In this document: in pieces, positions 3,901 to 34,667 of the stretch
Numbering within the stretch: position 1 is the first letter of the stretch
Layout of the letters: each line of letters starts with the position of its first letter
Origin: Clostridia bacterium
GTDB lineage: Bacteria > Bacillota > Clostridia > Lachnospirales > Lachnospiraceae
Length of the DNA stretch: 39,960 bases
Assembly: GCA_026000755.1 (NCBI GenBank)
Contig: BNZC01000010.1
Span: 1 to 39,960, forward strand
Reading direction: 5' to 3'
The notes under the pieces: model-generated
Database searches by the model: none
Told to the model about the DNA's origin: nothing
What the model saw: the letters and a program-made list of their open reading frames with translations, nothing else
Made by a program: the position numbers and the translations under genes

Positions 3901-4170
3901 ATGAGCGGAACATATCAAGTAAGACAAGCGGCAGGTCTGCATTATATCTTGCGAATGGATCAAAAAGGTCCTGCCTACCAAAAGCCTCTTGCAGTCAACC
4001 AAATGGGCGCACTCATCTGGCAGATGTTACAAGAGGGCAAGGAGAAGGACGTCATCATAGAGAAGCTGATGTCTATCTATGATGTAGAGCGTTTCGTGCT
4101 GCAAGAAGATATGGAAGTATTCTTGGAACAACTTAGAAGTACAAATTTTATAGACAAAGATAAGGAGTAA
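3901..4170 (+). CDS. PqqD-family small protein (RRE-like)
   Basis: An 89-residue protein resembling the PqqD/RiPP-recognition-element fold, a winged helix that binds leader peptides in RiPP pathways. Seen: a beta-rich N-terminus (YQVRQAAGLHYILRMD), then the family pattern NQMGALIWQML-EGK with IIEKLMSIYDV and DMEVFLEQLRSTNFID. No radical-SAM enzyme, precursor peptide or maturase is nearby, so a RiPP role is not supported. It is the first gene of the Pel-like operon, 7 nt before the PelD-like gene, and ATG 3901 has GGAG upstream. Its job here is unknown; a recognition or adaptor role for another operon protein is inference. The family call rests on motif pattern alone. Confidence 0.75.
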   Translation: MSGTYQVRQAAGLHYILRMDQKGPAYQKPLAVNQMGALIWQMLQEGKEKDVIIEKLMSIYDVERFVLQEDMEVFLEQLRSTNFIDKDKE

Positions 4171-4177
4171 AATACGC

Positions 4178-6361
4178 ATGAATATTTTACTTGTTGGCGG
4201 AAGTAACAACTTCATGAACGCCATCATTGACAAACTGAACAAAGAGGGGCATAGAACTTATGTGCTGACAGGCGACACCTCCAAGAAACAGACCTATCGG
4301 AAGGTGTTTGAAGAGTATAATTTTGCCTATGACAATAACAATTTGAACGAGATTTTCGATAGTGTAAATCCCGACATTGTCTTGTTTATGGGTGCCTTTG
4401 ACTCGAATTTTGAGTGGTCAGTTAAAAAGAGGGATTCTGTGGAGTATTCGTCGGGAATCTTAAATATGCTGATGGCTTTTTCTATGTTAGAGGGGAATCA
4501 CCGCTTTGTGTACCTGTCGTCAAGTGAGGTGTTCCAGAAATCCTATGCCGTAGACATCAAAGAGGATGAATTGCCCACGCCTAAGGATGTGCGAGGAATG
4601 GCAGTTGCTTTAGGCGAGCAGATGTGCCGCAATTACAGAGAGGCCACAGGCAAGGATATTATAACCTTGCGCCTTGATAATGTCTATGAGATTCCGGAGG
4701 ACAGAGAGGGCGTGACCGATGCTTGTTCTAAGCTGTGTCTTCAGGCTATGCGTGATGGCAGAATTATAGCAGATGACAACAAGCAGTTTTCTTTGTTGTA
4801 TATTTCGGATGCAGTTGAGTTTGTATATAAACTTATCATTTGCAGGGAACATGAAAGACAGGTATATAATATTTCTGCCATGACGGAGATTTCGGAAAAA
4901 GATCTTGCCCTCATGGTGCAGCGTGCAATGGGAGAGGGTGTTACCATAATCGACAACACCAGTGATGCAGTGGATCGTGTTATCTTGTCGGCGAATGCCT
5001 ATGACGAGGAATTTCGGATTCATATTTTCCATACCCCGCAAAAGGTTGTGCCGAAGATGGCAACCTATATGAAGAAGAATAGTGATAAGTTCTTGGAGAA
5101 AGAGGAAGCACCGGCAGGATTTTGGACGGCGCTCTATCGCCGAAGTAAGGTGATTGTGGATGCGGCGATTCCCTATTTGGAGAACCTGATCGGATTTATC
5201 CCTTTCTTTATCTTAAATAATCAGGCGGCAGACAGTCGGTTTTTTGCGAACGTGGACTTCTTCTTGTTGTATGTGTTGTTGTTCGCTATTGTTTACGGAC
5301 AGCAGCAGGCGACTTTCGCGGCTATTTTAGCGGTTGTGGGATATTGTTACCGTCAGATGTACGCCAGGTCCGGTCTTGAAGTTATGATGGATTATAATAC
5401 CTATGTGTGGATTGCCCAATTGTTTATTGTTGGTCTGGTAGTCGGGTATATGCGGGATCAGATTAACCTTGTTCGAGAAGAAGATAAGAAGCAGTTGGAT
5501 TATGTAGATGCCCAGTTAGGTGATATTAAGGAAGTAAATACCTCTAACGTGCGTACAAAGAACATATTAGAAGTAGAAGTAATAAACCAGAACAAGAGTT
5601 TGGGTAAGATTTACGACATTACCTCAAGCTTGGAGCAGTACGAACCGCAGGAGGTACTCTTCTATGCGGCGGAGGTTTTGGGTCGATTGATGGATAGTCC
5701 AAGCGTTGCCATTTATTCGGTTGCCAACCGCTCCTTTGCTCGCTTGTTTTCTTCCACTTCAAGTGATGCCCGTGTTTTGGGCAACTCCGTGAATTATACT
5801 GCCTTGACGGATATGTACGAGGAAATCAAAGAAAACCGTGTTTACATCAATAAGAACATGGATGAGAAGTATCCCTTAATGGCAAGTGCCATCTATGGGG
5901 AAGAAGATATGCAGTTGATTATGATGGTTTGGGGCATTCCTTGGGAGCGGATGACATTAGGTCAGGCCAATATGCTACGTGTAATTGGTTATCTGATTCA
6001 AAATGCCGTAGTACGAGCAAACCGTTACATGGATGCTTTACAGAATGATCGTTATATAGAGGGAACCCATATTTTAGAAACGGAAGCGTTCCGTTCTCTG
6101 GTAAATGCGTATATGAATGCGTTTAATAAGAACCTGACCGAGTGTACCATGCTTGTGATTAATGTGGATGAGCAGGGTCAGACAGCAGCAGCAGTTAAGT
6201 TACAAGAAAAATTGCGCCAGAGCGATTCGCTTGGTAAGTTAGAGGACGGAAGACTCTACGCCCTCTTGTCTAATACGCCTCACAAGGATGCAGCTTTTGT
6301 AATCAAGCGTTTTGCGGAAGTGGGCTATGAGAGCAGTATTTGGGAGGAAGCGGTGGCATGA
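4178..6361 (+). CDS. pelD: PelD-like c-di-GMP receptor with N-terminal SDR domain
   Basis: Inner-membrane receptor expected to activate Pel polymer synthesis when it binds c-di-GMP. Domains in order: an NAD-epimerase-like SDR domain (about 1-290); four membrane helices (about 330-425); a coiled coil (about 428-485); a GAF domain (about 490-625); and a degenerate GGDEF domain (about 640-727). The GGDEF signature is replaced by LEDGRL, so no cyclase activity is expected. The inhibitory-site RxxD is kept as R680-Q-S-D683, which is how Pseudomonas PelD binds c-di-GMP. The SDR domain looks inactive: the glycine motif is G7xxN10xxM13 and the YxxxK pair reads R139xxxV143. The TM-GAF-degenerate GGDEF order is the PelD hallmark; the SDR fusion is the unusual part. 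The stop overlaps the next ATG (ATGA). Confidence 0.85.
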   Translation: MNILLVGGSNNFMNAIIDKLNKEGHRTYVLTGDTSKKQTYRKVFEEYNFAYDNNNLNEIFDSVNPDIVLFMGAFDSNFEWSVKKRDSVEYSSGILNMLMAFSMLEGNHRFVYLSSSEVFQKSYAVDIKEDELPTPKDVRGMAVALGEQMCRNYREATGKDIITLRLDNVYEIPEDREGVTDACSKLCLQAMRDGRIIADDNKQFSLLYISDAVEFVYKLIICREHERQVYNISAMTEISEKDLALMVQRAMGEGVTIIDNTSDAVDRVILSANAYDEEFRIHIFHTPQKVVPKMATYMKKNSDKFLEKEEAPAGFWTALYRRSKVIVDAAIPYLENLIGFIPFFILNNQAADSRFFANVDFFLLYVLLFAIVYGQQQATFAAILAVVGYCYRQMYARSGLEVMMDYNTYVWIAQLFIVGLVVGYMRDQINLVREEDKKQLDYVDAQLGDIKEVNTSNVRTKNILEVEVINQNKSLGKIYDITSSLEQYEPQEVLFYAAEVLGRLMDSPSVAIYSVANRSFARLFSSTSSDARVLGNSVNYTALTDMYEEIKENRVYINKNMDEKYPLMASAIYGEEDMQLIMMVWGIPWERMTLGQANMLRVIGYLIQNAVVRANRYMDALQNDRYIEGTHILETEAFRSLVNAYMNAFNKNLTECTMLVINVDEQGQTAAAVKLQEKLRQSDSLGKLEDGRLYALLSNTPHKDAAFVIKRFAEVGYESSIWEEAVA

Positions 6362-7287
6362 TAGCCTTTATTGTAATTTTGGTTTTGAATACCTTGCTTT
6401 CCGTAGCCTATGTGGTGTGGGGATATTTCTTTTACCCTATCGTCTGGAAAAAGGGCGTGGACGATGGCACGTATAACCGTTTTGCCTATATGATGCGGGG
6501 CATTGTCATGTTTTTGTGTCCTATCGTAGGTCCCTTATTCTTTGGTATCGGTTTGCTCTGGAGAAAGATCTTTTTTCACGGCGATGTGGATTTGGATGAA
6601 ATCATCTTCAGCAAAGAGAGGGTGGAAACCTTTACTAAGGCAGATGTCGATCAAGGTCGTAATCTGGTTCCCTTAGAAGAGGCCATGTTAGTGTCTGATC
6701 AGACAGCACTTCGTAACCTTATGTTGAATGTCGTAAAGGGAGATGTGGAGAAATCGTTATCCGCTATTGCCTTGGCGTTAAACAGCGAAGATTCGGAAAC
6801 GGCTCATTATGCAGCATCCATTCTGCGTGATTACTTGAATGATTTTCGTACTACCGTGCAGACGGGTTACGAGGAGATGCAAAAGGATCCCGAGAATATC
6901 GAAGAATATGCGACTACCCTCATTCCCTACATGAATGGTATTTTAAGGCAACATGTCTTTGCAGACATTGAGCAAAAGGGTTTTGTTTATACTCTGGATC
7001 AGATTGGCGAACTGTTCTTCTCTCATGATAAGGACAAGATGGAAAGCATGCATTTTGAAAGAATTTGCGAGCGTCTGTTGGATGAAAAAGAGTATGATCT
7101 CATGGCGAAATGGTGCGAACGTTTGGTGCGGGAGTATCCCGATACCTTGTTGGCTTATACCTGTCGTCTGAAATTGTACTTTAGCACGGGACAGAAAGAT
7201 AGGTTCTTTACTATATTAAAAGAACTAAAGGCCTCAAATATTATTCTGGATGCGGAAACCATTGAGATGATTCGTGTATTCCAATAA
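6358..7287 (+). CDS. pelE: PelE-like membrane protein with TPR-type helical domain
   Basis: Probable scaffold of the Pel synthase complex. ATG 6358 is preferred over an upstream TTG because it forms an ATGA overlap with the PelD stop and has GGGAGGA about 10 nt upstream. The 309-residue product has two N-terminal membrane helices (about 2-22 and 46-68) and then a soluble alpha-helical domain. That domain carries repeat-like helices such as TALRNLMLNVVKGDVEKSL, SETAHYAASILRDYL and EYDLMAKWCERLVREYPD, as in TPR folds. Two TM helices plus TPR directly after pelD is the PelE layout. Sequence identity to the Pseudomonas protein cannot be judged here, so the name rests on architecture and position. 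Confidence 0.7.
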   Translation: MIAFIVILVLNTLLSVAYVVWGYFFYPIVWKKGVDDGTYNRFAYMMRGIVMFLCPIVGPLFFGIGLLWRKIFFHGDVDLDEIIFSKERVETFTKADVDQGRNLVPLEEAMLVSDQTALRNLMLNVVKGDVEKSLSAIALALNSEDSETAHYAASILRDYLNDFRTTVQTGYEEMQKDPENIEEYATTLIPYMNGILRQHVFADIEQKGFVYTLDQIGELFFSHDKDKMESMHFERICERLLDEKEYDLMAKWCERLVREYPDTLLAYTCRLKLYFSTGQKDRFFTILKELKASNIILDAETIEMIRVFQ

Positions 7288-7308
7288 CCATTGGGGGAGG
7301 TAGCGACT

Positions 7309-9843
7309 ATGTCCATGAAACTGCTGATTATGCGGCAGTTTGCAGAAGTATTTGGTGCCTATGCTGTTTTGGTACTATTGCTTCCCTGTCTTGTCTTTTA
7401 CCGAAATGTAAGAAAAGAATCCCTTGAAACCAGACTTATGGTGTATATGGCCATTGGAAATTGTTATATGATGGCAGTCGTTTTTATTATGGGTCTGTTC
7501 TATTTGGCTTTGAGTAAGCTTCATATTCCTGTGTTGGGTACCGGTGTGATTGAAAACACCGCCCGGTGGGATGTTATAAACAGAAGAATCCTCTGGATTG
7601 TTTTAATTGCCAGTCTCCTTTTGACCAAGTTTCGCTTAAAGCGAGTGAAGCGTTCTTATATCGTACAGGTAACACGAGAATATACCATAAAGATTGTCAA
7701 AGGAACTGTTGGCATAAAATCTTTCTTTTTGATGGTGGGTTTTTGGGCAAAAAAGCAAGTGTGGTTTGCCGGGATTCATACTGTAAAGCTCATTCGAAAG
7801 AATATAATTGATGCTGTTTTGTTTCTGGGTCTGGTGTTTCTCCTACTCCTTGTATATGGTAGGGGTATGTTTCAAGTATATGGTTACACCGCCTCCGATA
7901 TGTTGGTGCATACGAATTGGGTCAACGATTTAAGCCAAAACCATATTTTTAGCGGGGGGGTATATCCCTTTGGCTTTCACTGTATTGTATATTATTTGCA
8001 TACCGTATTTCATTTGGACACCTTTGTGGTATTTCGGGTCTTTTCTTTTGTACAGACCTTATTTATACATTTAAGCCTCTTGCTGTTTTTGAAGAACTTT
8101 TGCAAATCAAGATACCTGCCCTATGGTGCTATGGCACTTTATATTGGCGGAAAATTCTTTTATTTTTACACCTATAGCAGGTTTTACAGTACCTTGCCTC
8201 AAGAATTTGGCATGATTTTTATTTTGCCTGCTGTGTATTTTTTAATCGGCTACTTTCGAATTCGAAAGCAAGAGCTTGCGAGAGTAGGTAAGCCCGAGGA
8301 AGAGCTTGCGAGGGTAAGTAGCCCTGAGAAAGAGAAAAAAGAGGGAGACAGAGGAGAGGGAAAGGAAACGGAACAAGCAGGTAAGTCACCTAGTGATTTT
8401 GTTCAAAAATGGCGTTCCTCTTATCGAAACAGCCAATCTCTCTGGTATATGGTGTGGTTTGCCTTAAGTGTCAGCCTGACCTTATCCGCTCACTTTTATG
8501 ATACTATCATTGCGGCACTCTTTTGTATTGCTGTTGTGGTTTCTTATGGTCTTAGGTTTGTAAGACTTGCTTATTTGAAACGCTTACTTCTGGGAGGAGG
8601 CCTTGGAATCCTCCTTGCTCTTTTGCCCATGCTGATCGCTTTCGCTCTTGGCACACCATTGCAGGGTTCTTTGGCATGGGGGATGAAAGTTGCCGGTGGC
8701 TCGATAGAAACCGGCAGTACAGATTTACCGGGTTCTAAGGAAGCCCCCTCCGGCAAGAAAAAGGGAGCAGGGGCGAAAACGCCGGATGCTACGGCACCGC
8801 CCAAAACAGAGCTAGAGAAAGTAGAACATGCCTTGCTTGCTCTTCCTCAAAAGATTGGTGCAAAAACAGCGGATCTCTTGAATAAACCCATGCAGAGCTT
8901 AACCGTACAGAATATAGAGTTTGCTGTACAGACCTATGTGTTTCCAAGTGCGCCGAAAGTTGTCTTGAACCTTATCCTATATGCAGTACCTTTCCTGTTG
9001 TTGGAGGGACTGGTGTTCTTTCTCTTAAAGAAAAGGGATGAGGCGGCACTGTTGGCATCAGCGGGGATTTTTTTGATATTTATGCTTCTGTTACAGGCGG
9101 CGAAGCTTTTGGGACTGCCTCCTTTGTTAGATGCCAATCGTTGTCGGATTTATCTTAGTTATATGTTGCCTGTGTTTGCCTGTTTTGCCTTAGATGGCAT
9201 ACTGATACTCATTTTTGGGAGGTTTAAGCGTAAGTGGATTTTGCCTCTATGTTCCTTGCCCTTTGTATTGCTTGTGACCTTGTTCCTAGTGCGACCGGGA
9301 GAACTGAGAGAGACCTATACCTCAAGCGCAGAAGAAACGAATACGGCAATTGTTTGTTTGAGCAATATCCTAAAACAGGAGACGAAAGGGACTTGGACGA
9401 TTGTTTCCGCTTTTGACGAAGCCAGGTTGGCGCAGGATTACGGCTATCATTATGAGCTTATGACTTTTCTGCAAGAAATGGAGTCCCCCTCACAGAGAAA
9501 GAGCATTACCATTCCTACCCCGAAAGTATATTTCTTTATTGAAAAGATACCCCTTGCCTACGATTATTCCTTGGCTTATGCGGGAGCCGGCAGTAAAGTG
9601 TCTCAGTCAGTGGCGCAAAAGCCTATGCCGAACTCGGTGGCTGCACTGGATTTTACCTCCTATATCGGAGAGAGTCGTTTGATTCTCATGTCGAAAATGT
9701 ATTATTGGGCAAAGAAGTTTTCTGCAATTCGTCCCAATGAAATGCAGGTATATCTGGAAACAGATGAGTTTATTTGTTATGTTGTAGAGCAAAACACCGA
9801 TCGTCTGCTGGATTTTTCCATAGATTATGGGTATAATGACTAA
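7309..9843 (+). CDS. Polytopic GT-C-like membrane protein, copy 1
   Basis: 844 residues with about 14 hydrophobic helices and a soluble C-terminal domain of about 180 residues. ATG 7309 has GGGGGAGG 8 nt upstream and aligns with the start of its paralog at 11842. After the fourth helix comes ASDMLVH (D197, H201) followed by GGVYPFGFH, an acidic first-loop pattern reminiscent of GT-C glycosyltransferases that use lipid-linked sugars. Conserved between the paralogs are GTPLQGSL.W.M, WTIVSAF, KVYFF.EK, LMSKMY.WA and VEQNT....FSIDYG. A charged loop (about 320-375) interrupts the helices and contains a 30-nt tandem duplication. Not part of the minimal Pel set. Catalytic function is inference; a non-enzymatic assembly platform is possible. 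Confidence 0.6.
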   Translation: MSMKLLIMRQFAEVFGAYAVLVLLLPCLVFYRNVRKESLETRLMVYMAIGNCYMMAVVFIMGLFYLALSKLHIPVLGTGVIENTARWDVINRRILWIVLIASLLLTKFRLKRVKRSYIVQVTREYTIKIVKGTVGIKSFFLMVGFWAKKQVWFAGIHTVKLIRKNIIDAVLFLGLVFLLLLVYGRGMFQVYGYTASDMLVHTNWVNDLSQNHIFSGGVYPFGFHCIVYYLHTVFHLDTFVVFRVFSFVQTLFIHLSLLLFLKNFCKSRYLPYGAMALYIGGKFFYFYTYSRFYSTLPQEFGMIFILPAVYFLIGYFRIRKQELARVGKPEEELARVSSPEKEKKEGDRGEGKETEQAGKSPSDFVQKWRSSYRNSQSLWYMVWFALSVSLTLSAHFYDTIIAALFCIAVVVSYGLRFVRLAYLKRLLLGGGLGILLALLPMLIAFALGTPLQGSLAWGMKVAGGSIETGSTDLPGSKEAPSGKKKGAGAKTPDATAPPKTELEKVEHALLALPQKIGAKTADLLNKPMQSLTVQNIEFAVQTYVFPSAPKVVLNLILYAVPFLLLEGLVFFLLKKRDEAALLASAGIFLIFMLLLQAAKLLGLPPLLDANRCRIYLSYMLPVFACFALDGILILIFGRFKRKWILPLCSLPFVLLVTLFLVRPGELRETYTSSAEETNTAIVCLSNILKQETKGTWTIVSAFDEARLAQDYGYHYELMTFLQEMESPSQRKSITIPTPKVYFFIEKIPLAYDYSLAYAGAGSKVSQSVAQKPMPNSVAALDFTSYIGESRLILMSKMYYWAKKFSAIRPNEMQVYLETDEFICYVVEQNTDRLLDFSIDYGYND
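8271..8330 (+). repeat. 30-nt tandem duplication inside GT-C-like copy 1
   Basis: Two adjacent 30-nt units (8271-8300 and 8301-8330) share their first 13 bases and differ at a few later positions. They encode ELARVGKPEE and ELARVSSPEK in the charged cytoplasmic-type loop. The unit is a multiple of three, so copy number could change without a frameshift. Confidence 0.85.
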
Positions 9844-9901
9844 GCCCCGCTCTTTGGGGTGATACTTATCGGTAAGATTCCTTACAAGGAGGACTAGGCC
9901 T

Positions 9902-11725
9902 ATGATGCTGACATACAGAATTTTTATCACGCTTACCAGTATATTGCTTGTGATCTTTTTTCTGTTTGTCGCCGCAAACATCATGCAAACAGTCTGGAAT
10001 GATTATCAGACAAACCCCTATGCGGGTTCCTTGGTTCCGATTTCGGAAGATAATCAGACCTTGATTGCCCAGACCGATTCCTATCTCCCCATGGGAATCG
10101 CACATTATGTGGCATATGTGGGCAATACCGAAGATCAATCGGTGGGTGCCATGATAGAGGAATGGTGTGTTTACAAGAAATGTGCCTTGCTAAAGAGTTC
10201 TTCTGTATCAAACAGTCTTTGGCACAAGCCGAATCCGCCGGATATGGTGTTACTTGATAGTAACTATCTTACCCTGCCGGAGGATATAAGCATCATACAA
10301 GACTGGGCAAACCAAGGAATCGGTATTGTATTTTTGAATTTGCCGAAAGAAAGTGTGTTGGCGGATTCTAAGGAATTGCAAGATTTACTGGGAATTTCCT
10401 CCATCAAAGCGGCAAACCAATCCTTGACCGGGGTGGAGATTTATGAAGGTTTTCTGTTGGGGGGGCATCAGATTTATGATTCTACCGATCCAAATAACAA
10501 AGATAGATCAGATTTAGACTTAAACGTACCTTGGTATCTTTTATCAGGGGGAACGAAGGCCTATATGGTTGGTCTACTTTCCGATAAGACCGTAAAAAAT
10601 GAGGAACTTCCCGCATTGGTATGGGATCATCCTGTGGCAAATACAAGGGTGTTTGCGGTAAACGGGGATTATATGAATGATGTGACAGGTTTTGGCTTTT
10701 TGGATGGCATGATGACAGAAATGCAAAGCTACAGTATCTATCCTGTAGTAAATGCCCAGAGTCTGGTTTTTGCCAACTGTCCCGTCCTTGCTGACGAAAA
10801 TGATACCTATATGCAGGCCACGTATGGTCAGTCCGCTCGGACTATGTTTCGAGACGTAATCTGGCCAAGCATGATTGCCCTTTCACAGAAAAGTGCCATG
10901 AAAATCACCTGTTTGCTGACACCGAAACTGGATTACACCGATAAAACTGTGCCGGTGGGTGCAGATCTTTCCTCTTATATCAGCCTGTTTAATAAATATC
11001 AAGCAGGTACAGGACTTTCCGGTATGCGAGATTCAGGAACCAGTCTGAAACAAAAAATTGACCAAGATAGTCTTTTCTTAAAACAATATATGCCGGAATA
11101 TGATTATTTTGCCATGTATTTGGAAGATCCAAAGGAATGGAGTGGGGTGGCGGATGAAAATTTACTAAAGTCAATCCGTACAATAGCCGATAACTATAGT
11201 GGTGAGTCTAAGCTGCTGTCCTATTTGACAGAGAATGTGACCTTACAGCAGGGAATTGACACCGGTTTTACCCATAGCTTTAAAGACGATCTTAGGCTGC
11301 GAAGTGTGGAAAGTTCCTTGGCTTACAGCCATATCTTGGTTGATATGAAACCTTTGGTATTTCCTGCTAGTGCAGAGGATAGATGGGAGAAACTCTCCCC
11401 TGCCTTAGCTGCAAATATTGTCACCTATTGGAAACCTTTTTCCCAATTTGGACAAACGGATCTTTCAGAAAGCGACAATCGCATTCGGGAGTTTTTGGCA
11501 TTGAATTACTCTCAGTATCGCAATCAGAATACTATTCATCTGGGAATTACAGGGAAATTTGCGGGAGAGGCGTACTTTATCTTAAGAACGCATGAAGAAG
11601 AGATTGCATCAATTACGGGAGCTACCTATCTTCCTATAGAGGAAGACGCATATCTTATGCAGGCGACCGAGGAAAATGTAACGATTACACTGGAACCAAA
11701 ACAAGTACTGTACTATGTTGAGTAA
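9902..11725 (+). CDS. Membrane-anchored DUF2194-type protein, copy 1
   Basis: 607 residues: an uncleaved signal anchor (about 8-27), then a large domain expected outside the membrane. The first part looks like a Rossmann/GATase-like fold (YVAYVGNTED, PDMVLLDSNYL, GIGIVFLNLP). The rest resembles the DUF2194 family, often found beside PelF-type genes and taking the place of the deacetylase part of PelA in Gram-positive Pel loci. Segments shared with the copy at 14830 include GFLLGG, YMVGL, RVFAVNGDY, YPVVNAQSL, TPKLDYT, LSYLTENVTLQ and FILRTHEE. ATG 9902 has AAGGAGG at 9886-9892. The gap before it holds a CCCC/GGGG mini-hairpin (9845-9859). Deacetylase activity is inference; I could not assign metal ligands. 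Confidence 0.65.
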   Translation: MMLTYRIFITLTSILLVIFFLFVAANIMQTVWNDYQTNPYAGSLVPISEDNQTLIAQTDSYLPMGIAHYVAYVGNTEDQSVGAMIEEWCVYKKCALLKSSSVSNSLWHKPNPPDMVLLDSNYLTLPEDISIIQDWANQGIGIVFLNLPKESVLADSKELQDLLGISSIKAANQSLTGVEIYEGFLLGGHQIYDSTDPNNKDRSDLDLNVPWYLLSGGTKAYMVGLLSDKTVKNEELPALVWDHPVANTRVFAVNGDYMNDVTGFGFLDGMMTEMQSYSIYPVVNAQSLVFANCPVLADENDTYMQATYGQSARTMFRDVIWPSMIALSQKSAMKITCLLTPKLDYTDKTVPVGADLSSYISLFNKYQAGTGLSGMRDSGTSLKQKIDQDSLFLKQYMPEYDYFAMYLEDPKEWSGVADENLLKSIRTIADNYSGESKLLSYLTENVTLQQGIDTGFTHSFKDDLRLRSVESSLAYSHILVDMKPLVFPASAEDRWEKLSPALAANIVTYWKPFSQFGQTDLSESDNRIREFLALNYSQYRNQNTIHLGITGKFAGEAYFILRTHEEEIASITGATYLPIEEDAYLMQATEENVTITLEPKQVLYYVE

Positions 11726-11787
11726 GATATGCTTATCGAAACGCAGTTTCGGTAAGATATGCTTATCGAAACGCAGTTTCGGTAAGA
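11722..11787 (+). repeat. Two tandem 30-nt hairpin repeats between operon genes
   Basis: Two exact 30-nt units (11722-11751 and 11752-11781) plus six bases of a third. Each unit, with the start of the next, folds into an 11-bp stem. Arms in the first copy are CTTATCGAAAC (11732-11742) and GTTTCGGTAAG (11746-11756) around loop GCA, with one U-G pair on the coding strand; the second hairpin spans 11762-11786. No T-tract follows. They sit between the first DUF2194 gene and the second GT-C-like gene and could act as an RNA stabiliser or processing site. Related elements lie at 9865-9876 and 29309-29338. Confidence 0.85.
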
Positions 11788-11841
11788 GAGCTGAAAACTC
11801 GTCAATATGACTATACCAAAAGAGGGGAGGTGAAAGAAGCC

Positions 11842-14799: not shown

Positions 14800-14829
14800 G
14801 AACCTTATTTGCTGAAATGGAGGAGGAAT

Positions 14830-16638: not shown

Positions 16639-16645
16639 GAAGATT

Positions 16646-18250
16646 ATGGCAAAGAAAAAAAAGAATCCAAATGATCACATGCGAGTGGCAATTGTAGCGG
16701 AGGGGTGTTACCCTTATGTGGTAGGTGGTGTATCCTCTTGGGTACACAGCGTGATACAAAGTTTTCCGAATGTAGAGTTTGTGGTGGTGGCGATTGTTGC
16801 AAACCGTTCCCTAAGGGGAAAGTTTGTCTATGACATGTTGCCAAATGTGACGGAGGTACGGGAGCTTTATCTGGAGGATTATGATTGGTATCTGAAAAAA
16901 CCGTCCACAAAGCGTTTTAAGGTGAACAAAGAGGTGTACGGGGCATTGGAGAGTCTTGTGCTGAATAAGGATGTACAATGGGATCCGCTGTTTCATTTCT
17001 TTTCAGAGGAGGATTTTTCCTTAAACGATTTGTTGATGGGAGAGGATTTCTTAAACGTAGCGAAAGATGCCTATTATCTTCAATACAACCAGTGTACCTT
17101 TGCGGATTTTTTGTGGACGATTCGGTCGATTTATCTGCCTTTATTTTTAACCATGAAACTACAGCTTCCGGAAGCCGACCTCTATCATTGCGTGGCGACG
17201 GGATATGCAGGCGTGATTGGTAGCATGGCAAAGGTCATTTATGACAGCGGACTGTTGGTTTCCGAGCATGGAATCTACAGCCGTGAGCGTGAAGAAGAAT
17301 TAATCAAAGCCAAATGGGTGAAAGGAATTTATAAAAATATTTGGATTGATCAGTTTAAGAAGATGAGTATCGTTGCTTACAACAAAGCAGATAAGGTCAC
17401 AAGCTTGTATGAATATGCCCGTGAGCTTCAGATTGAGCTAGGCTGTCCCGAGGTTAAGACAGAGGTAACGCCCAATGGAATCAACACGCAAAACTTTGCG
17501 GATTTACCCGGAAAAACGGCGGAGGATGGGGATTTTATCAACATCGGAGCAGTCCTTCGTATAACCCCCATTAAGGATGTAAAGACCATGATTCGTGCCT
17601 TTGCTTTTGCAAAGGAGAAACAGCCGAAATTAAAATTATGGTTGATGGGACCGGATGATGAGGATCCCGAATACGCCAAAGAGTGTTTTGATATGGTAGA
17701 AAACCTAAAAATTCCCGATGTGGTATTTACAGGTAGGATTAACGTAAGAGAATACTTGGGACGTATGGATGCCACAATATTAACCAGTATCAGTGAGGGT
17801 CAGCCCCTAACTATCTTAGAGGGTTATGCGGCTCATAAACCCACCATTGCCACAGATGTAGGAAACTGCCGAGGGCTGATTTATGGGGAAGGATCGGATA
17901 AATTTGGTCCTGCCGGTATCTTAACCCATATCATGAATGTAGAAGAGGTTGCTCAAGCCATGATTGACATAGCGAACAAGCCGGAACAGCGTTATGCGAT
18001 GGGAGAAGCGGGTTATCAACGTGTTATGGCCCGCTATCGTATTGAGCATATGAAAGCCACCTACCGAGAAATCTATGAGAATTTTGCGGCAAAAAAGATG
18101 GTTATGTGGACAGAAGAAGTGTTTGATGTGAGGAACACGTCGGAGGGTCAAAAAGCATTGGAAGAAGGTAAGAAAGCTGCCTTGCGGGAAAAAAAGACCA
18201 CCGAGAGAAAAGGAAAAAACCAAATCAAGCAGAAAGCGGGAAGGGGGTAA
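16646..18250 (+). CDS. pelF: Pel polysaccharide glycosyltransferase PelF (GT4)
   Basis: Cytoplasmic GT-B enzyme that polymerises the Pel chain from UDP-sugar. 534 residues, slightly longer than the Pseudomonas protein because of a basic tail (KKTTERKGKNQIKQKAG). The N-terminus MRVAIVAEGCYPYVVGGVSSWV is highly typical of PelF, with the GGVS glycine loop. Also seen: DLYHCVATGYAG, SEHGIYSREREEEL, TPNGI, IGAVLRITPIKDVKTMI, and the GT4 EX7E pair E384/E392 in SEGQPLTILE. AGGAG lies before ATG 16646; pelG follows after 3 nt. This is the strongest single piece of evidence that the operon is of the Pel type. Confidence 0.93.
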   Translation: MAKKKKNPNDHMRVAIVAEGCYPYVVGGVSSWVHSVIQSFPNVEFVVVAIVANRSLRGKFVYDMLPNVTEVRELYLEDYDWYLKKPSTKRFKVNKEVYGALESLVLNKDVQWDPLFHFFSEEDFSLNDLLMGEDFLNVAKDAYYLQYNQCTFADFLWTIRSIYLPLFLTMKLQLPEADLYHCVATGYAGVIGSMAKVIYDSGLLVSEHGIYSREREEELIKAKWVKGIYKNIWIDQFKKMSIVAYNKADKVTSLYEYARELQIELGCPEVKTEVTPNGINTQNFADLPGKTAEDGDFINIGAVLRITPIKDVKTMIRAFAFAKEKQPKLKLWLMGPDDEDPEYAKECFDMVENLKIPDVVFTGRINVREYLGRMDATILTSISEGQPLTILEGYAAHKPTIATDVGNCRGLIYGEGSDKFGPAGILTHIMNVEEVAQAMIDIANKPEQRYAMGEAGYQRVMARYRIEHMKATYREIYENFAAKKMVMWTEEVFDVRNTSEGQKALEEGKKAALREKKTTERKGKNQIKQKAGRG

Positions 18251-18253
18251 GAT

Positions 18254-19741
18254 ATGTCAGGAATTGGTGTTACTCTTAAGAAATTCTTTAATCGACACAA
18301 TGTGGCATCGAATATCATTGGTATGGGATACAGTGCCATGGTTACCGTTGCACCCATGTTTGTGGTTATCGGATGTATTTTGTTGATGCAGGCTGTCTTA
18401 GGTTATGAGGCGGTGGGCTATGCCCAACGGAATCTCTTTGCCTGTACGGTATTGTATATCTTTATTTTTTCCCTGCTTACGGCATCGCCCTTTAATGCCG
18501 TTTTATCCCGTTATATGTCGGACGTTATCTATGAGGAACGGCCGGAGGATATTTTGCCCTGTTATTATGTGGGATTGTTGCTTAATATCATCCTAAGTAC
18601 TATGGTTGCCATTCCTTTTTGTATCTGGGAGCATGTGGTTGGAGAGGTGCCCATCCATTTTGTCTTTACCGGTTACTGCGGTTATGTCTGTCTTGTTATG
18701 GTGTTTTACTCCATGCTGTATCTGTCCATTGCAAAGGATTACAAAGAGATTTCGTTCTTTTTCCTCTTGGGCATGGTTGTAGCATTTTTGTTTTCTTGGA
18801 TCTTTGTAAAGGGTCTGCATATGGAGATTACCTATTCCATGTTGCTTGGTTTAGCCATTGGCTTCTTTTTGACTGCCACCATGGAGATGGCAAGTGTAAT
18901 CTATTATTTTAAGGAAAACAGCGGGCGTTATAAGCCGGTGCTTTCGTATTTTCGTATTTACTGGCAACTTATTGTCATTAACTTTATGTATACGGCGGGT
19001 CTTTATGTGCATAATTTCGTATTCTGGACAACGGATTTGCGTATTGTGGTAGCCAAGAGCTTTATCTCGGCACCCAGTTATGACATGGCGACTTGTATTG
19101 CCATGTTTACCAATATTTCTATGACGGTTATCTTTATTTCTCAAGTGGAAATGCACTTCCGTGACCGTTATAAGGCCTATTCGGAGTCCGTTATCGGCGG
19201 GCGGGGTATGGATGTAGAGAAAAACAAGAAAATGATGTTCTCCACCTTAGCGGATCAGGTCATGAGCTTGGTGCGTATCCAGTTTATCATTTCGGTTGTT
19301 ATCTATCTGGTTTGTGTGGTGGTACTGCCTCGCATGGGCTTTGCAGGTACTGTAATGGAGATTTATCCTTGCCTTGCCGCCGGTTACTTTATTTTGTTTA
19401 TCATGTATTCCCTGATTATCTTCCATTATTATTTCAATGATTTAACGGGGGGGGTACTTACTGCAACTGCGTTTTTTGCAGCTACGATTCTGGGCGCTAT
19501 CTTCTCCAGTCATCTTGCCATGAACTGGTATGGTCTGGGACTTGTAATCGGAACCATAGTTGGATGGACTTCTGCTTTCATGCGTCTTCGTTGGACGGAG
19601 CGGAATATGGATGCCCACATCTTCTGTAGGGGCGATTTGTATCCAAGGAGAAAAGGGGTGCGGCCATCGGATACGGTGTACAGTGCTTATGATGTACTTC
19701 GCAGCCCCAAGAAACTTGCTACTGCTGATGTGGAGGATTAA
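18254..19741 (+). CDS. pelG: Pel polysaccharide flippase/transporter PelG
   Basis: Polytopic membrane protein of the MOP/flippase superfamily, thought to move the growing Pel chain across the membrane in complex with PelD and PelE. 495 residues with about 12 hydrophobic helices. The N-terminus (GIGVTLKKF) precedes the first helix region GYSAMVTVAPMFVVIGCILLMQ; further typical pieces are SRYMSDVIYEERPEDILPCYY and YFNDLTGGVLTA. A run of eight G (19447-19454) encodes the Gly-Gly of the latter; the frame is intact. The ribosome binding site AAGGGGG precedes ATG 18254. Immediate linkage to pelF matches known Pel loci. Confidence 0.92.
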   Translation: MSGIGVTLKKFFNRHNVASNIIGMGYSAMVTVAPMFVVIGCILLMQAVLGYEAVGYAQRNLFACTVLYIFIFSLLTASPFNAVLSRYMSDVIYEERPEDILPCYYVGLLLNIILSTMVAIPFCIWEHVVGEVPIHFVFTGYCGYVCLVMVFYSMLYLSIAKDYKEISFFFLLGMVVAFLFSWIFVKGLHMEITYSMLLGLAIGFFLTATMEMASVIYYFKENSGRYKPVLSYFRIYWQLIVINFMYTAGLYVHNFVFWTTDLRIVVAKSFISAPSYDMATCIAMFTNISMTVIFISQVEMHFRDRYKAYSESVIGGRGMDVEKNKKMMFSTLADQVMSLVRIQFIISVVIYLVCVVVLPRMGFAGTVMEIYPCLAAGYFILFIMYSLIIFHYYFNDLTGGVLTATAFFAATILGAIFSSHLAMNWYGLGLVIGTIVGWTSAFMRLRWTERNMDAHIFCRGDLYPRRKGVRPSDTVYSAYDVLRSPKKLATADVED

Positions 19742-19746
19742 GAGTT

Positions 19747-20208
19747 ATGGCTCTGTTGACGGATTTAAGACTTGTTTTAATTATCGTAGGGGTTCTCATG
19801 CTCTTTTTGACCTTTGTGGAATATGCCAGAAAAGATCTGACGGAAACCATGAGTTCCATTTGGGGTATTTTTAACATAGCCCTGATTGTGGTGGCATTAT
19901 TCAATCCCATATGGTGGTGGGCAAATCGGGGGGGAACTCGTATTTATCTCTTGATTTTCCTTGTATTTCTGGTGTTGATTGGGGCGGTATTCGCTCTAAG
20001 TATAACCCTTTCCCATCAGATGATGAAAGATCGAGAGATTGCGATTCAAGTTTCTCTGTTGATTCAGGAAAATGAACAATTTCGGACACAGCTGCGAGCA
20101 TTAGAGCAGCGGGTGCAGCTATCGGCGGAGCAAGAGAATGAGGAGCATTTGCAAGCAGAACAGGCAGCAGATAAAACTTCTCTTTTCCCTACAAAGGAGG
20201 GAGCATGA
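19747..20208 (+). CDS. DUF2304-like small membrane protein
   Basis: 153 residues: three membrane helices (about 8-24, 38-58 and 66-88) followed by a hydrophilic coiled-coil tail (IQENEQFRTQLRALEQRVQLSAEQENEEHLQAEQ split over about 105-140). This resembles DUF2304 proteins, which are usually encoded beside family 2 glycosyltransferases that make polyprenyl-phosphate sugars; such a GT2 lies two genes downstream. The tail is longer than in typical DUF2304 proteins of about 115 residues. Its stop overlaps the next gene's ATG (ATGA). A G7 run lies at 19928-19934. Function unknown; a membrane partner of the GT2 is inference. Confidence 0.6.
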   Translation: MALLTDLRLVLIIVGVLMLFLTFVEYARKDLTETMSSIWGIFNIALIVVALFNPIWWWANRGGTRIYLLIFLVFLVLIGAVFALSITLSHQMMKDREIAIQVSLLIQENEQFRTQLRALEQRVQLSAEQENEEHLQAEQAADKTSLFPTKEGA

Positions 20209-21455
20209 GACAGGAGAAAAAAACAATCCTAGTTGTTATCAATACTCTGGGACATGCAGGTGCAGAGGTGGCTCTCCTGGAGATGCTTCGTCATATTACG
20301 CCTGACCGTTATAGAGTGGATCTTTATATACTCATGGGGCAGGGCGAAATGGTTCATCTGCTTCCCCCTCATGTACGGGTTTTGAACAAGACGTATAAGG
20401 ACGTAAGTGTTTTGGCAAAAGAGGGCAGGGGTCATCTCTATCGCACGGTGCTTTCTGCGGCGTTTCGCAGAGGAACCATTATTCGCCGCATTCCCTATCT
20501 GCTGAAAAATCTTATCGCTATGATGAAAGATAAAAAAATCTGGGGAGAAAAACTGCTCTGGAGGATACTTGCAGACGGAGGAATGCGTTTAAAAGAAGAA
20601 TATGATCTTGCGGTTTCCTATCTGGAGGGTGGATCAGCTTATTATGTGACGGATTATGTCAAAGCAAAAAAGAAAGCAACTTGGGTGCATGTGGATTACG
20701 GCAGGGCGGGTTATACCAGAGCCTTAGATCTTGACTGCTACCTCTCCTTTGACCGTATTTTCCCTGTTTCGGATGAGGTAAAGGATAGTTTTCTTAAGGT
20801 CTATCCGGAATGTGCAGATAAGACGATGGTATTTCGAAACTTTATCAATCAAGAGGCAATTAGAGAACGAGCAAAGGAAAAGGGCGGTTTTTCAGAACTT
20901 GAACCGGAGGGCAATCACACGATTCGACTGCTTACGATTGGGCGGCTGACCTATCAGAAAGCCTTTGATATTTCCATAGAGGCGATGAAACTGATAAAAG
21001 ATGCAGGTTTTTCGGCGTGTTGGTATGTTTTGGGAGATGGAAACCAAAGGCAAAGCTTGGAAAAGCTGATACAAGATTTGGGTTTACAAGAAGACTTTAA
21101 GCTCTTGGGTGCGGTGAATAATCCCTATCCCTATCTTGCCCAGACCACGATTTACGTACATGCCAGTCGTTTTGAAGGAAAGAGCATTGCGATTCAAGAA
21201 GCGCAGACCTTGGGCTGTTCCATTATTGCATCGGATTGCAGCGGCAATCGGGAGCAGATTGTTCCGGGTGTGGATGGTCTGTTATGCGATTTGACACCGG
21301 AAAGCATTAAGGAGGCAGTCGTACGACTGATTCAAAACGAAGAAGAGCGGAAACGCTTTGGGGAAGCGGCTAAGAATAAAAAAATCGTGCATTTAGAGGA
21401 TTTGGACATGTTATTATCTTTAGTAGAAGATGAGGACGAAAAGAATGGAAACTAA
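20205..21455 (+). CDS. Family 4 glycosyltransferase
   Basis: 416-residue GT-B enzyme. The N-terminal half starts ILVVINTLGHAGAEVALLEML, typical of GT4 enzymes acting on exopolysaccharide. The C-terminal half has LLTIGRLTYQKAFDISIEAM, YVLGDGNQRQSLEKLI and the EX7E motif EGKSIAIQE (E324, E332), then SDCSGNREQI. No signal peptide or membrane helix. AAGGAGGG precedes the ATG, which overlaps the DUF2304 stop. Sugar and acceptor cannot be told from sequence. Position after pelG suggests a later step, such as branching or primer synthesis, for the same polymer. Confidence 0.88.
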   Translation: MRQEKKTILVVINTLGHAGAEVALLEMLRHITPDRYRVDLYILMGQGEMVHLLPPHVRVLNKTYKDVSVLAKEGRGHLYRTVLSAAFRRGTIIRRIPYLLKNLIAMMKDKKIWGEKLLWRILADGGMRLKEEYDLAVSYLEGGSAYYVTDYVKAKKKATWVHVDYGRAGYTRALDLDCYLSFDRIFPVSDEVKDSFLKVYPECADKTMVFRNFINQEAIRERAKEKGGFSELEPEGNHTIRLLTIGRLTYQKAFDISIEAMKLIKDAGFSACWYVLGDGNQRQSLEKLIQDLGLQEDFKLLGAVNNPYPYLAQTTIYVHASRFEGKSIAIQEAQTLGCSIIASDCSGNREQIVPGVDGLLCDLTPESIKEAVVRLIQNEEERKRFGEAAKNKKIVHLEDLDMLLSLVEDEDEKNGN

Positions 21456-22245
21456 TGCCAAAACAAACCAAAAAGAAGTGCTGATTATTATGCCGGCCTA
21501 CAATGAGGAGTATAACATTGGGCAAGTTTTAGAGAGCATTGACAATAGTGATTGGGCGGATCTTGCGGATGTTTTGGTTATGAATGATGCCTCTACGGAT
21601 CACACGGCGCAGATTGTCAGAAAAGATCACCATATGGTTGTGACCCATATCTTTAATCTGGGCTACGGAAACGGTTTACAGTTAGGCTATAAGTATGCTG
21701 CGCGAAAGGGGTATCGCTATCTGATTCAGATGGATGCGGACGGGCAGCACGATATTTGCAATGTGCCGCTTATCTATGAAAAGCTAAAAGAAACGGATGA
21801 TGAGGGTCATACCCCTGATTTTGTGTTGGGAGCACGTTTTATGGAAGGGAGCGCACCCTTTAAGACTTCGGTATTTAAGAAGATTGCCTATGCCTTTTTT
21901 CGTAGAATAATCAAGGGTATCACAGGGAAGAGAATCGCAGATCCTACTACGGGCTTACAGGGTTTAAGCCGTCGTGCCTTTGTGTTTTGCTCAAAGTACA
22001 ACCAATTTGAGGACAAGTATCCGGATGCAAATGTTATTATTCAGATGTCTTTACTGGGTTTTCGTGTAGAGGAGATTCCGGCTGTTATGCATATTAGGGA
22101 GAGCGGGGTTAGTATGCATTCGGGTATTATCGGGCCTTGTCGTTATATGATACGCATGTTTATTTCTATATTGGCAGTATTCTATCGGATTAAGATACTG
22201 AAATGGTATCAAAAACCCATTGTCGATGATGCGGCTGATTTTTAG
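21445..22245 (+). CDS. Family 2 glycosyltransferase (DPM/GtrB-like)
   Basis: GT-A enzyme of about 266 residues, similar to polyprenyl-phosphate sugar synthases. Seen: LIIMPAYNEEYNIGQVLESI, VMNDASTDHTAQIV, GNGLQLGYKYAARKGY, the metal-binding D97-A-D99 in QMDADGQHD, and ADPTTGLQGLSRRA. The C-terminus has one hydrophobic stretch (MFISILAVFY) and no large membrane domain. ATG 21445 (GAGG 9 nt upstream) is preferred to ATG 21430, giving an 11-nt overlap with the GT4 gene. With the DUF2304 protein it may make a lipid-linked sugar that the GT-C-like proteins could use; that link is inference. Confidence 0.88.
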   Translation: METNAKTNQKEVLIIMPAYNEEYNIGQVLESIDNSDWADLADVLVMNDASTDHTAQIVRKDHHMVVTHIFNLGYGNGLQLGYKYAARKGYRYLIQMDADGQHDICNVPLIYEKLKETDDEGHTPDFVLGARFMEGSAPFKTSVFKKIAYAFFRRIIKGITGKRIADPTTGLQGLSRRAFVFCSKYNQFEDKYPDANVIIQMSLLGFRVEEIPAVMHIRESGVSMHSGIIGPCRYMIRMFISILAVFYRIKILKWYQKPIVDDAADF

Positions 22246-23626
22246 GAAAAAGGAAGCCCCGTTTTTTTCCAAAGAGTTACCGCAAGAGGGCAGAAATCTT
22301 TTGAAAAATCCCGGTGGGGGTTGGTATCGGATTTATACCCTGCTTGCAGATACCGATATTGTAGACAAAGAATTGATTTGGAGTCTCCATGAAGAAGATG
22401 TCCTTGTCTTTCTCTTAATAGACATTGGTATGTACCAAAAAGAAAAGATTTCCCAAGAGGGATTACGTATCATCCGCCATATCCTAAGTTTTTTTGAAGA
22501 ACATGGAAAGGAAATGATTCTGCGTTTCGTTTATGACAGGGAAGGGCGGGGGATGTTAAAGGAACCGCCCTATTTTGACTTAGTACGGGAACATATGCGG
22601 CAAATCGGAGAAATTGTGGCGGAATACGCAAGTTCTATTTATACCATGCAGGGGATTTTTGTCGGGAACTGGGGCGAAATGCACGGTTCTAAGTTTTTGG
22701 CGAAAGAGCAGGTTAAACTATTGACGGAAACCCTTTGGGAGTCCTGCGGCAAATCCATACCTATGGCAGTGCGAAAGCCTGCCCATTGGCGTATGATTTT
22801 CCCCGAGAAAGAGGGAGAACATATCTTGCAAGTTGCGAAAGACCCTCGGGCAAGCGATAGGGCGGCTATGCGGGTGGGTCTGTATGATGATGCCATCCTC
22901 TCCTCGGATGATGATATGGGTACCTTTGGCATAAAGCCACGGCGAGAGTCTGCTTGGACAGATAGTTGGCTGCCGGAGGACGAATTGCGGTTTCTCATGG
23001 GTCTGGGCGGACATTTTCCCATAGGTGGTGAAACAGCCAAGACAGCTTCCGGGGTGAAAGAGCGTTCCTTTGATGAGATTATAGCAGTATTACGCCGTAT
23101 GAGGATTAGTTACTTAAATTGCGTACATGATGCCAGCGTACTCACAAAGTGGAAAAAGATTTTTTGTGAGCAGGAGGGTGTGTGGCTTGGCATAAGTCTG
23201 TACGACTATGTTGGTGTACATTTAGCTTACCGTTTTGTAATAAGGGAAGCAGAGATCAAAAAGCAGAAGAAAAAAGGGAAAGTGCGGTATGTGCTTTGCT
23301 TGACCATTGAAAATACGGGATTTTCCAGGTGCTTTGAAAAAGGGGTTCTGTCCTTACTTTTGAAAGAAGACAGAGCAAAACAAAGCAACATAAAAGCTTG
23401 TAACACAGAAATAGTAAGACATATCGACATACGAAATTGGGAGAGCGGACAGCTCACAAAAATCACCCATGAAATTCAAGAAATTAGCGGCGAAGGTATC
23501 TTATATCTATGCCTTCGCCGCAAAAAGGATAACAGGACCATTTACTTTGCCAACCAAGGGAACCAAGGAAACCAAGCGGAAATAATCTTGGGGAGGTTTT
23601 CTACAGAAACATCGCCCAGTTCATAG
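22226..23626 (+). CDS. DUF4874/DUF4832 TIM-barrel-like protein, plus-strand copy
   Basis: About 466 residues and the last gene of the operon. N-terminal DUF4874-like part: NPGGGWYRIYTL, FLLIDIGMYQKEKIS, ILRFVYDREGRG and GIFVGNWGEMHGSKFL, where the Glu of WGEMH is a plausible glycosidase-type acid. C-terminal DUF4832-like part: RVGLYDDAI, GGETAKT, RISYLNCVHD and a beta-sandwich tail with LTIENTGF. No signal peptide. The start is uncertain: ATG 22226 and 22229 both lie inside the GT2 gene and neither has a good ribosome binding site. The 3' end overlaps the convergent paralog by 85 nt. Carbohydrate processing is inferred from fold family and context. Confidence 0.7.
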   Translation: MMRLIFRKKEAPFFSKELPQEGRNLLKNPGGGWYRIYTLLADTDIVDKELIWSLHEEDVLVFLLIDIGMYQKEKISQEGLRIIRHILSFFEEHGKEMILRFVYDREGRGMLKEPPYFDLVREHMRQIGEIVAEYASSIYTMQGIFVGNWGEMHGSKFLAKEQVKLLTETLWESCGKSIPMAVRKPAHWRMIFPEKEGEHILQVAKDPRASDRAAMRVGLYDDAILSSDDDMGTFGIKPRRESAWTDSWLPEDELRFLMGLGGHFPIGGETAKTASGVKERSFDEIIAVLRRMRISYLNCVHDASVLTKWKKIFCEQEGVWLGISLYDYVGVHLAYRFVIREAEIKKQKKKGKVRYVLCLTIENTGFSRCFEKGVLSLLLKEDRAKQSNIKACNTEIVRHIDIRNWESGQLTKITHEIQEISGEGILYLCLRRKKDNRTIYFANQGNQGNQAEIILGRFSTETSPSS

Positions 23627-32116: not shown

Positions 32117-32122
32117 CGCAAT

Positions 32123-32803: not shown

Positions 32804-32848
32804 AAAATTGCCACCCCTTCGCATTTGGTATTTTTCACATTTGCTATG

Positions 32849-32907
32849 TTTATAGGATAACACTTTCAAATGACATCTCGGTGACTTTCAGGTGACACTT
32901 TTGTCAC
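32849..32907 (-). promoter_or_regulatory. Response-regulator operator and promoter of the ABC genes
   Basis: On the minus strand four successive 11-nt units start with GT: GTGACAAAAGT, GTCACCTGAAA, GTCACCGAGAT and GTCATTTGAAA (plus positions 32907-32864). A -10-like TATAAA (32854-32849) follows; the -35 position would fall within the repeats. Direct repeats spaced by 11 bp next to a promoter are the usual binding pattern of OmpR-family regulators, and one is encoded directly upstream. The first repeat overlaps the kinase stop codon. Confidence 0.6.
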
Positions 32908-34575: not shown

Positions 34576-34667
34576 TTGTCATTTCTCCCAAAATTCACGA
34601 CCATATTAGCGAAGCAAGAACATTCGGTAAGTAGCATCCTAAAAAGCAGGATTGAAGTTTCTTTCGG

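What the first reader, a model, noticed from the sequence alone, without database searches (positions are those of the whole stretch)
3901..23626. Expanded Gram-positive Pel-like locus with a duplicated GT-C-like/DUF2194 module
PelD-, PelE-, PelF- and PelG-like genes are present in one operon, but between PelE and PelF lie two paralogous pairs of a large polytopic protein and a membrane-anchored DUF2194-type protein, in the order A1-B1-A2-B2. Each pair keeps its own conserved motifs, so both look functional. Minimal Gram-positive Pel operons have a single deacetylase-type gene and no such 14-helix protein. The DUF2304/GT4/GT2 genes downstream could make a lipid-linked sugar that the GT-C-like proteins use. 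Together this could be a distinct, decorated Pel-family polymer system.
Basis: partly seen in the sequence, partly recalled or inferred. Interest (0 to 1): 0.88.

Follow-up and report, generated by a model that had tools for sequence, protein, structure and literature searches.

The report
Pel biofilm operon with built-in sugar-decorator
This gut-bacterial operon belongs to a widespread branch of the Pel biofilm-sugar machinery in which the usual deacetylase has lost its active-site residues and a membrane protein with a sugar-transferase fold, here in two diverged copies, stands beside it, which suggests that these bacteria decorate the polymer rather than deacetylate it.

Summary
The genes are as described: PqqD-like, PelD, PelE, A1-B1-A2-B2, PelF, PelG, DUF2304, GT4, GT2, DUF4874/DUF4832. 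The reading needs correcting. (1) A has a predicted GT-C fold. (2) B is the PelADA homologue of Gram-positive Pel loci, not an extra protein, and its deacetylase motifs are gone: DDFP and HxxNH in 0 of 88 B proteins of A-bearing genomes, all four motifs in 19 of 24 B of loci without A. (3) A single A-B pair is routine: A occurs in 31 of 299 family genomes, 29 of them with PelF over cut-off; PelF splits into A-type (86) and canonical (23). A DPM-synthase-like GT2 and a GacJ-like DUF2304 occur in 72 of 75 A-type loci, 0 of 17 others. (4) Only the A-B-A-B tandem is particular to this window (1 of 84 A-type loci); it is an old duplication. Best explanation: a Pel variant in which a multicomponent transmembrane glycosylation system decorates the exported polymer and PelADA survives as a non-catalytic subunit. 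Predicted fold, motif loss and co-occurrence are shown; acceptor, sugar, flippase and the role of B are inferred. New variant of a known kind.

The parts
3901..4170 (+). PqqD-like small protein (89 aa) at the head of the operon
   Evidence: PF05402 46.5 bits, cut-off 23.4; present in 36 of 45 A-type loci with at least 3.5 kb after PelG and 0.6 kb before PelD
4178..6361 (+). PelD-like: SDR/epimerase domain, transmembrane part, C-terminal degenerate GGDEF with RxxD
   Evidence: PF01370 63.5 bits; DUF4118 only below cut-off; RxxD in 91 of 94 A-type and 18 of 18 canonical PelD
6340..7287 (+). PelE-like
   Evidence: no Pfam match; place and a profile with 49 hits in the survey
7291..9843 (+). A1: polytopic protein with predicted GT-C glycosyltransferase fold
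   Evidence: AlphaFold2 model, pLDDT 82.7, pTM 0.85; GT-C matches; extracytoplasmic-loop Asp and His conserved
9902..11725 (+). B1: DUF2194, PelADA homologue without catalytic motifs
   Evidence: PF09960 67.0 bits; motifs lost
11830..14799 (+). A2: diverged paralogue of A1
   Evidence: BLASTP 37% and 36% in two segments; sister of A1, support 0.994
14809..16638 (+). B2: diverged paralogue of B1, deacetylase-like fold without catalytic motifs
   Evidence: PF09960 81.7 bits; model pLDDT 93.2; fold matches; sister of B1, support 0.988
16646..18250 (+). PelF, GT4 polymerase
   Evidence: NF038011 363.5 bits; E384-x7-E392 invariant in 109 of 109
18254..19741 (+). PelG, exporter
   Evidence: PF16933 476.5 bits
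19747..20208 (+). DUF2304, GacJ-like partner of a polyprenyl-phosphate sugar synthase
   Evidence: PF10066 27.3 bits, cut-off 25.5; DUF2304 is typical of GacJ-like proteins (PMC8327497, passage)
20205..21455 (+). GT4 glycosyltransferase
   Evidence: PF00534 107.5 bits
21430..22245 (+). GT2, dolichol-phosphate-mannose-synthase-like
   Evidence: PF00535 61.8 bits; only PDB sequence match at 1e-5 is DPM synthase 5mlz, 8.8e-7; best NCBIfam PpgS, 73.6 bits, below cut-off 370
22220..23626 (+). DUF4874/DUF4832 glycoside-hydrolase-like protein
   Evidence: 145.5 and 133.2 bits; DUF4832 is also in the Pel-dispersing hydrolase SIR_1591 (PMC12345266, passages)
23542..24867 (-). Convergent paralogue, DUF4874/DUF4832
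   Evidence: 157.0 and 156.8 bits; 31% identity to its neighbour; a convergent copy recurs in many A-type loci

Best explanation
The operon is a member of a Lachnospiraceae branch of the Pel system ('A-type'). Model: PelF polymerises and PelG exports a Pel-like amino-sugar chain under control of PelD (SDR domain, RxxD site). The GT2 with its DUF2304 partner charges a polyprenyl phosphate with a sugar, probably an N-acetylhexosamine; GT4 may lengthen it; a flippase, not identified in the operon, turns it outward; the GT-C protein A transfers it to the emerging chain. B keeps the PelADA fold as a non-catalytic subunit at the exit (polymer holder or structural part). In this lineage the A-B unit was duplicated long ago and both copies were kept, which fits two different decorations or a heteromeric transferase. 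Shown here: gene set, predicted GT-C fold, loss of deacetylase motifs, co-occurrence, old duplication. Inferred: that the acceptor is the Pel chain, the sugar, the flippase, the role of B and the difference between the copies.
Against: No flippase other than PelG in the operon; GtrA not found in this genome (68% complete) nor in the near-complete A-type genome G035. Three A-type loci lack DUF2304/GT2 beside PelG: L040 (the pair stands about 11 kb further on), L042, L063. Distance covariation does not single out A with B: partial r 0.03, p 0.32; B follows PelD (0.48) and PelG (0.30), A follows PelF (0.24) and PelD (0.23) (66 loci, window not among them). Two A-type loci lack B (L074, L075). In G001, G019 and G025 the A found is on another contig than PelF (G001 is fragmented). 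Other polysaccharide deacetylases exist in the genome (3 matches), so the polymer may still be deacetylated. No chemistry was done.
Confidence: 0.58

Rival explanations
1. PelF/PelG of this branch make a different backbone, so that the lack of a working PelADA reflects a polymer without N-acetyl groups to remove, and A adds a side sugar to that polymer.
For: PelF forms a separate clade; PelADA motifs are lost in all 88 B proteins of A-bearing genomes (DDFP, HxxNH); the paper on Gram-positive loci itself leaves open whether the Roseburia clusters make Pel (PMC7112168, passages).
Against: PelF keeps its E-x7-E pair and is well over the PelF cut-off; DUF4832 next to it is also found in a hydrolase that disperses Pel aggregates.
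Confidence: 0.17
2. A with GT2/DUF2304 glycosylates another acceptor (secondary wall polymer, teichoic acid or protein) and shares the operon only for common regulation.
For: GT-C enzymes of this kind act on wall polymers (PMC8035078, passages); in G019 and G025 the A found is not beside PelF; the top fold matches are protein-glycosylating enzymes, though that does not tell the acceptor.
Against: 29 of 31 A genomes have PelF over cut-off; in one more (G027) a cut-short PelF follows PelD-PelE-A-B; 70 of 84 A-type loci hold exactly A-B between PelE and PelF.
Confidence: 0.13
3. A ends the chain or ties the Pel polymer to a membrane lipid or wall anchor rather than decorating it along its length.
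For: GT-C enzymes such as WpsJ join polymer to polymer (PMC10821137, passages).
Against: No lipid-linked Pel chain is known to me (recalled); no anchor gene shows in the Pfam scans of the operon.
Confidence: 0.08
4. B is still a deacetylase that uses other residues.
For: The fold is kept at high confidence.
Against: The HxxxH segment, the MT1 Asp pair, the VPPS segment and the MT5 His are replaced or missing at the aligned positions; DDFP and HxxNH in 0 of 88.
Confidence: 0.03

Closest known systems
Gram-positive pelDEADAFG system (Bacillus cereus ATCC 10987; streptococcal and clostridial loci with degenerate SDR-PelD)
   Same: PelD with N-terminal SDR, PelE, a gene in PelADA position, PelF, PelG, a DUF4832 gene nearby (PMC7112168, passages)
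   Different: PelADA catalytic motifs lost; GT-C gene A, GT2, DUF2304 and GT4 added; no CotH, VTC or DUF4956 in the window's operon, which the canonical locus L061 carries
Roseburia pel loci in a larger cluster with GT1, GT2, DUF, PTase (S7 Fig of PMC7112168)
   Same: Perhaps the same branch; I saw only a text passage and the figure legend, not the figure
   Different: The passages seen do not mention a GT-C protein or an inactive deacetylase
Multicomponent transmembrane glycosylation systems, GacI/GacJ/GacK/GacL kind
   Same: GT-A synthase plus DUF2304 small membrane partner plus GT-C transferase
   Different: Placed inside a synthase-dependent exopolysaccharide operon; flippase not identified; acceptor untested
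PelADA (CE26; PDB chain 9zau, taken by me to be it) and Agd3 (CE18)
   Same: Canonical B of the family matches 9zau at 1.7e-111; window B2 has an Agd3/PelA-like fold
   Different: Window-type B matches 9zau only at 0.0015 and lacks the catalytic residues

Membership tests
Gram-positive Pel system (pelDEADAFG) | PelF polymerase | tested here: met
   NF038011 363.5 bits, cut-off 100; E-x7-E kept
Gram-positive Pel system (pelDEADAFG) | PelG exporter | tested here: met
   PF16933 476.5 bits
Gram-positive Pel system (pelDEADAFG) | PelD with c-di-GMP site (RxxD) | tested here: inconclusive
   RxxD present by alignment; GAF and GGDEF domains not reported by Pfam; binding not tested
Gram-positive Pel system (pelDEADAFG) | PelE | tested here: inconclusive
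   Place and within-survey profile only
Gram-positive Pel system (pelDEADAFG) | PelADA with deacetylase motifs | tested here: not met
   Homologue present, motifs absent in B1 and B2. Filed as a variant, not as a canonical member
PelADA deacetylase (CE26) | Overall fold and family relation | tested here: met
   hhalign 99.9% over 461 columns to canonical PelADA of the family; deacetylase fold matches
PelADA deacetylase (CE26) | Asp pair, HxxxH, Arg, His of the active site | tested here: not met
   0 of 88 for DDFP and HxxNH; aligned positions
GT-C glycosyltransferases | GT-C fold | tested here: met
GT-C glycosyltransferases | Acidic residue in the first extracytoplasmic loop | tested here: met
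   Asp in 105 of 105 ungapped; that this place is catalytic is recalled from other GT-C enzymes
GT-C glycosyltransferases | Transfer from a lipid-linked sugar | not testable with these tools
   needs biochemistry
Multicomponent transmembrane glycosylation system (GacI/J/K/L kind) | GT-A polyprenyl-phosphate sugar synthase | tested here: inconclusive
   DPM-synthase-like; PpgS below cut-off
Multicomponent transmembrane glycosylation system (GacI/J/K/L kind) | GacJ-like DUF2304 protein | tested here: met
   PF10066 27.3 bits, cut-off 25.5; 72 of 75 A-type loci
Multicomponent transmembrane glycosylation system (GacI/J/K/L kind) | Flippase | tested here: inconclusive
   None but PelG in the operon; GtrA not found in this incomplete genome; PF01943 matches elsewhere in it
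Multicomponent transmembrane glycosylation system (GacI/J/K/L kind) | Extracellular polymer as acceptor | not testable with these tools
   needs polymer chemistry

The most novel reading that the evidence does not exclude
A whole branch of Pel systems in gut Lachnospiraceae has replaced enzymatic de-N-acetylation by extracytoplasmic glycosylation: its PelADA is a pseudoenzyme, and a GT-C enzyme with its own lipid-sugar supply sets the chemistry of the polymer. This would join a synthase-dependent exopolysaccharide with a transmembrane glycosylation system, and in this lineage a duplicated A-B pair would write two different decorations.
Probability: 0.45. Interest if true: 0.82.

Novelty: new variant of a known kind. 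Interest (0 to 1): 0.66.

Why it matters
A working deacetylase is needed for detectable Pel in Pseudomonas aeruginosa and Bacillus cereus (PMC13254593, passages), so a branch that has lost the active site but kept the fold asks directly how such polymer is made, held or charged. The branch is found in cultured bacteria (Anaerobutyricum hallii DSM 3353, Blautia luti, Roseburia porci, Lacrimispora saccharolytica; record titles), so it can be tested. It also gives a likely function to two unnamed families: A, which some sources call an amino acid ABC transporter permease, and the DUF2194 branch without deacetylase motifs.

Tried and rejected
Considered and rejected: (a) that the A/B pair is unique to this genome: rejected. 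(b) That some DUF2304/GT4/GT2 loci lack A: the six without A between PelE and PelF (L019, L027, L028, L031, L045, L046) have A just downstream of the DUF4832 gene. (c) That B is a dedicated partner of A: the partial Mantel test gave no support; I keep only the weaker claim that B is part of the Pel complex. (d) Recent duplication or assembly artefact: against it stand 39% identity and long branches. (e) A second genome with A-B-A-B: none in the other 83 A-type loci with a PelE-PelF span; the genus holds only this genome in the collection; 71 of 151 relatives in the genome collection were not returned, so others may exist. (f) A first count of DUF2304/GT2 in 45 of 45 A-type loci owed its perfection to a flank limit of 3.5 kb; with 3 kb it is 72 of 75, and I use that.

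Led nowhere: sequence search of PDB with A1 and with the A profile and with B2 alone; with PelD only SDR proteins; promoter and terminator patterns at the level of chance (39 found, 42.3 expected; 16 found, 17.4 expected); Rfam only the tRNA. 9zau was not among the fold matches listed for B2; the fold library ends in April 2026, so this says nothing. PF09960 was not found in G346 and G603. Rows left out of counts: B proteins under 500 aa and sequence duplicates; 7 duplicates of 133 loci, then loci without a PelE-PelF span (126 to 107); loci with short flank after PelG. Ten loci were put by hand, in the class 'A elsewhere in the genome'; one search counted only six of them so, and there L042 and L063 fall among the 23 without A although their B lacks the motifs. 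L051 and L122 have B split into pieces and were counted as they stand. The GT2 and GT4 profiles are general and were counted anywhere in the locus. Supplementary figures could not be opened.

Full report
Observation. The window is contig C10 of a 1.55 Mb genome in 129 contigs, rated 68% complete. On the + strand from 3901 to 23626 stand thirteen genes with gaps of about 105 bases at most or short overlaps: PqqD-like, PelD-like, PelE-like, A1, B1, A2, B2, PelF, PelG, DUF2304, GT4, GT2 and a DUF4874/DUF4832 protein; a paralogue of the last follows on the other strand. PelF and PelG are far above their curated cut-offs. A1 and A2 match at 37% and 36% identity in two main segments, B1 and B2 at 42%.

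Survey. Of 299 genomes of the family, 52 have PelF over the cut-off, at 53 places; 52 loci were fetched besides the window. A occurs in 31 of the 299; 29 of these have PelF over cut-off; G027 has a PelF cut short to 144 aa behind PelD-PelE-A-B; G274 has only a fragment of A (intersection by hand). The other 23 PelF genomes have no A. A scan of one genome for each of 84,980 species gave 151 relatives of A, of which 80 loci were returned. After removal of 7 duplicates from 133 loci, 107 hold the PelE-PelF span; of the 84 A-type ones 70 read A-B, 10 B, 2 nothing, 1 A-B-B (B split) and 1 A-B-A-B, the window. The usual layout is PqqD, PelD, PelE, A, B, PelF, PelG, DUF2304, GT4, GT2, DUF4832, often with a convergent DUF4832 gene behind. 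With 3 kb or more after PelG, DUF2304 and GT2 each occur in 72 of 75 A-type loci, DUF4832 in 69, GT4 in 68, and none of these in 17 loci without A; the exceptions are L040, L042 and L063, and for L040 a GT2-DUF2304 pair stands about 11 kb further on in the same direction. PqqD heads 36 of 45 loci that could be judged. The loci without A drawn have other genes after PelG; in L061, the one scanned, these are CotH, VTC and DUF4956, as in the published streptococcal and clostridial loci (PMC7112168, passages). A PelF tree of 109 splits 86 A-type from 23 canonical with support 0.999 and none misplaced; the E-x7-E pair is invariant; RxxD of PelD is kept in 91 of 94 and 18 of 18. Across the class, 6 of 391 genomes have A, 3 of them outside the family: G478 has DUF2304-PelD-PelE-A-GT2-B-PelF-PelG with a B without motifs, while G346 and G603 have PelF-like genes with A-like genes, GT2, DUF2304 and a MurJ-like gene and no DUF2194.

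The sugar supply. GT2 has one PDB match at 1e-5, dolichol monophosphate mannose synthase, and its best NCBIfam match is a polyprenyl-phospho-N-acetylgalactosaminyl synthase, far below cut-off. DUF2304 is typical of GacJ-like proteins that stand beside the Und-P-GlcNAc synthase GacI (PMC8327497, passage), whose product the GT-C enzyme GacL uses (PMC10821137, PMC8035078, passages). In loci of another layout (L022, L023, L026, L056, L156) DUF2304 stands before PelD, and GT2 beside A, without GT4. A flippase was not identified: none but PelG in the operon; GtrA in 10 of 12 chosen genomes (10 A-type, 2 canonical) but not in this one or G035; PF01943 in 10 of 10 A-type genomes, here outside the window's contig.

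The duplication. A1/A2 (support 0.994) and B1/B2 (0.988) are sister pairs with long branches, so the A-B unit was most simply duplicated once in this lineage, and both copies have stayed intact. No relative with the same tandem was found in the loci examined.

Against my reading. Distance matrices of 66 loci give no special tie of A to B (partial r 0.03, p 0.32); B goes with PelD and PelG, A with PelF and PelD. This favours B as a part of the Pel complex rather than a helper of A. L074 and L075 do without B. In G001, G019 and G025 A is on another contig than PelF. The genome holds other polysaccharide deacetylase matches (3).

Known or new. Papers describe SDR-PelD, variable accessory genes and a Roseburia Pel cluster with GT and DUF genes (PMC7112168, passages), the hydrolase SIR_1591 (PMC12345266, passages) and PelADA (PMC13254593, passages); no paper was read whole. 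I found none that describes a GT-C protein or an inactive PelADA in a Pel locus, in searches of an open-access library; supplementary figures were not readable. I rate it a new variant of a known kind.

Noticed in passing
window 23542-23626: The + strand DUF4874/DUF4832 gene and its convergent paralogue overlap by 85 bases at their 3' ends; a convergent copy recurs in many A-type loci.
   Followed up: partly
window 25364-27670 (-): One ORF of 768 aa joins a GerB-type spore permease to a GerAC protein, next to a GerA gene.
   Followed up: no
L039, L047, L053: Pel loci without A but with two tandem PelADA genes, the one next to PelF without catalytic motifs, and a PelG ORF of about 1090 aa.
   Followed up: partly
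L074, L075: A-type loci without a B gene and with PelF of 858 and 808 aa ending in an Ala/Asn-rich tail.
   Followed up: partly
L154, L155: Outside the family: PelF-like gene, A-like GT-C genes (two in L154, flanking GT2-DUF2304), ATP-grasp and MurJ-like genes; L154 also has a PF01522 deacetylase gene.
   Followed up: partly
L168 9127-19200 (same locus type as L104): An A-type operon in which PelF is cut to 144 aa and followed by ORFs of 441 and about 2650 aa in place of PelG and the rest.
   Followed up: no
window 3901-4170: A PqqD-like protein heads most A-type Pel operons (36 of 45 judged) and none of the loci without A drawn; its role is unexplained.
   Followed up: no
L157 499-3079 (-): Downstream of one A-type locus a PF01943 flippase-like gene and a protein that looks like a Stealth phosphotransferase (recalled from its N-terminal motif) follow in the same direction.
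   Followed up: no
window 29474-37155 (-): FtsX/MacB-type ABC transporter, histidine kinase and response regulator, a 547-aa ORF without Pfam match and a further ABC ATPase in a row.
   Followed up: no
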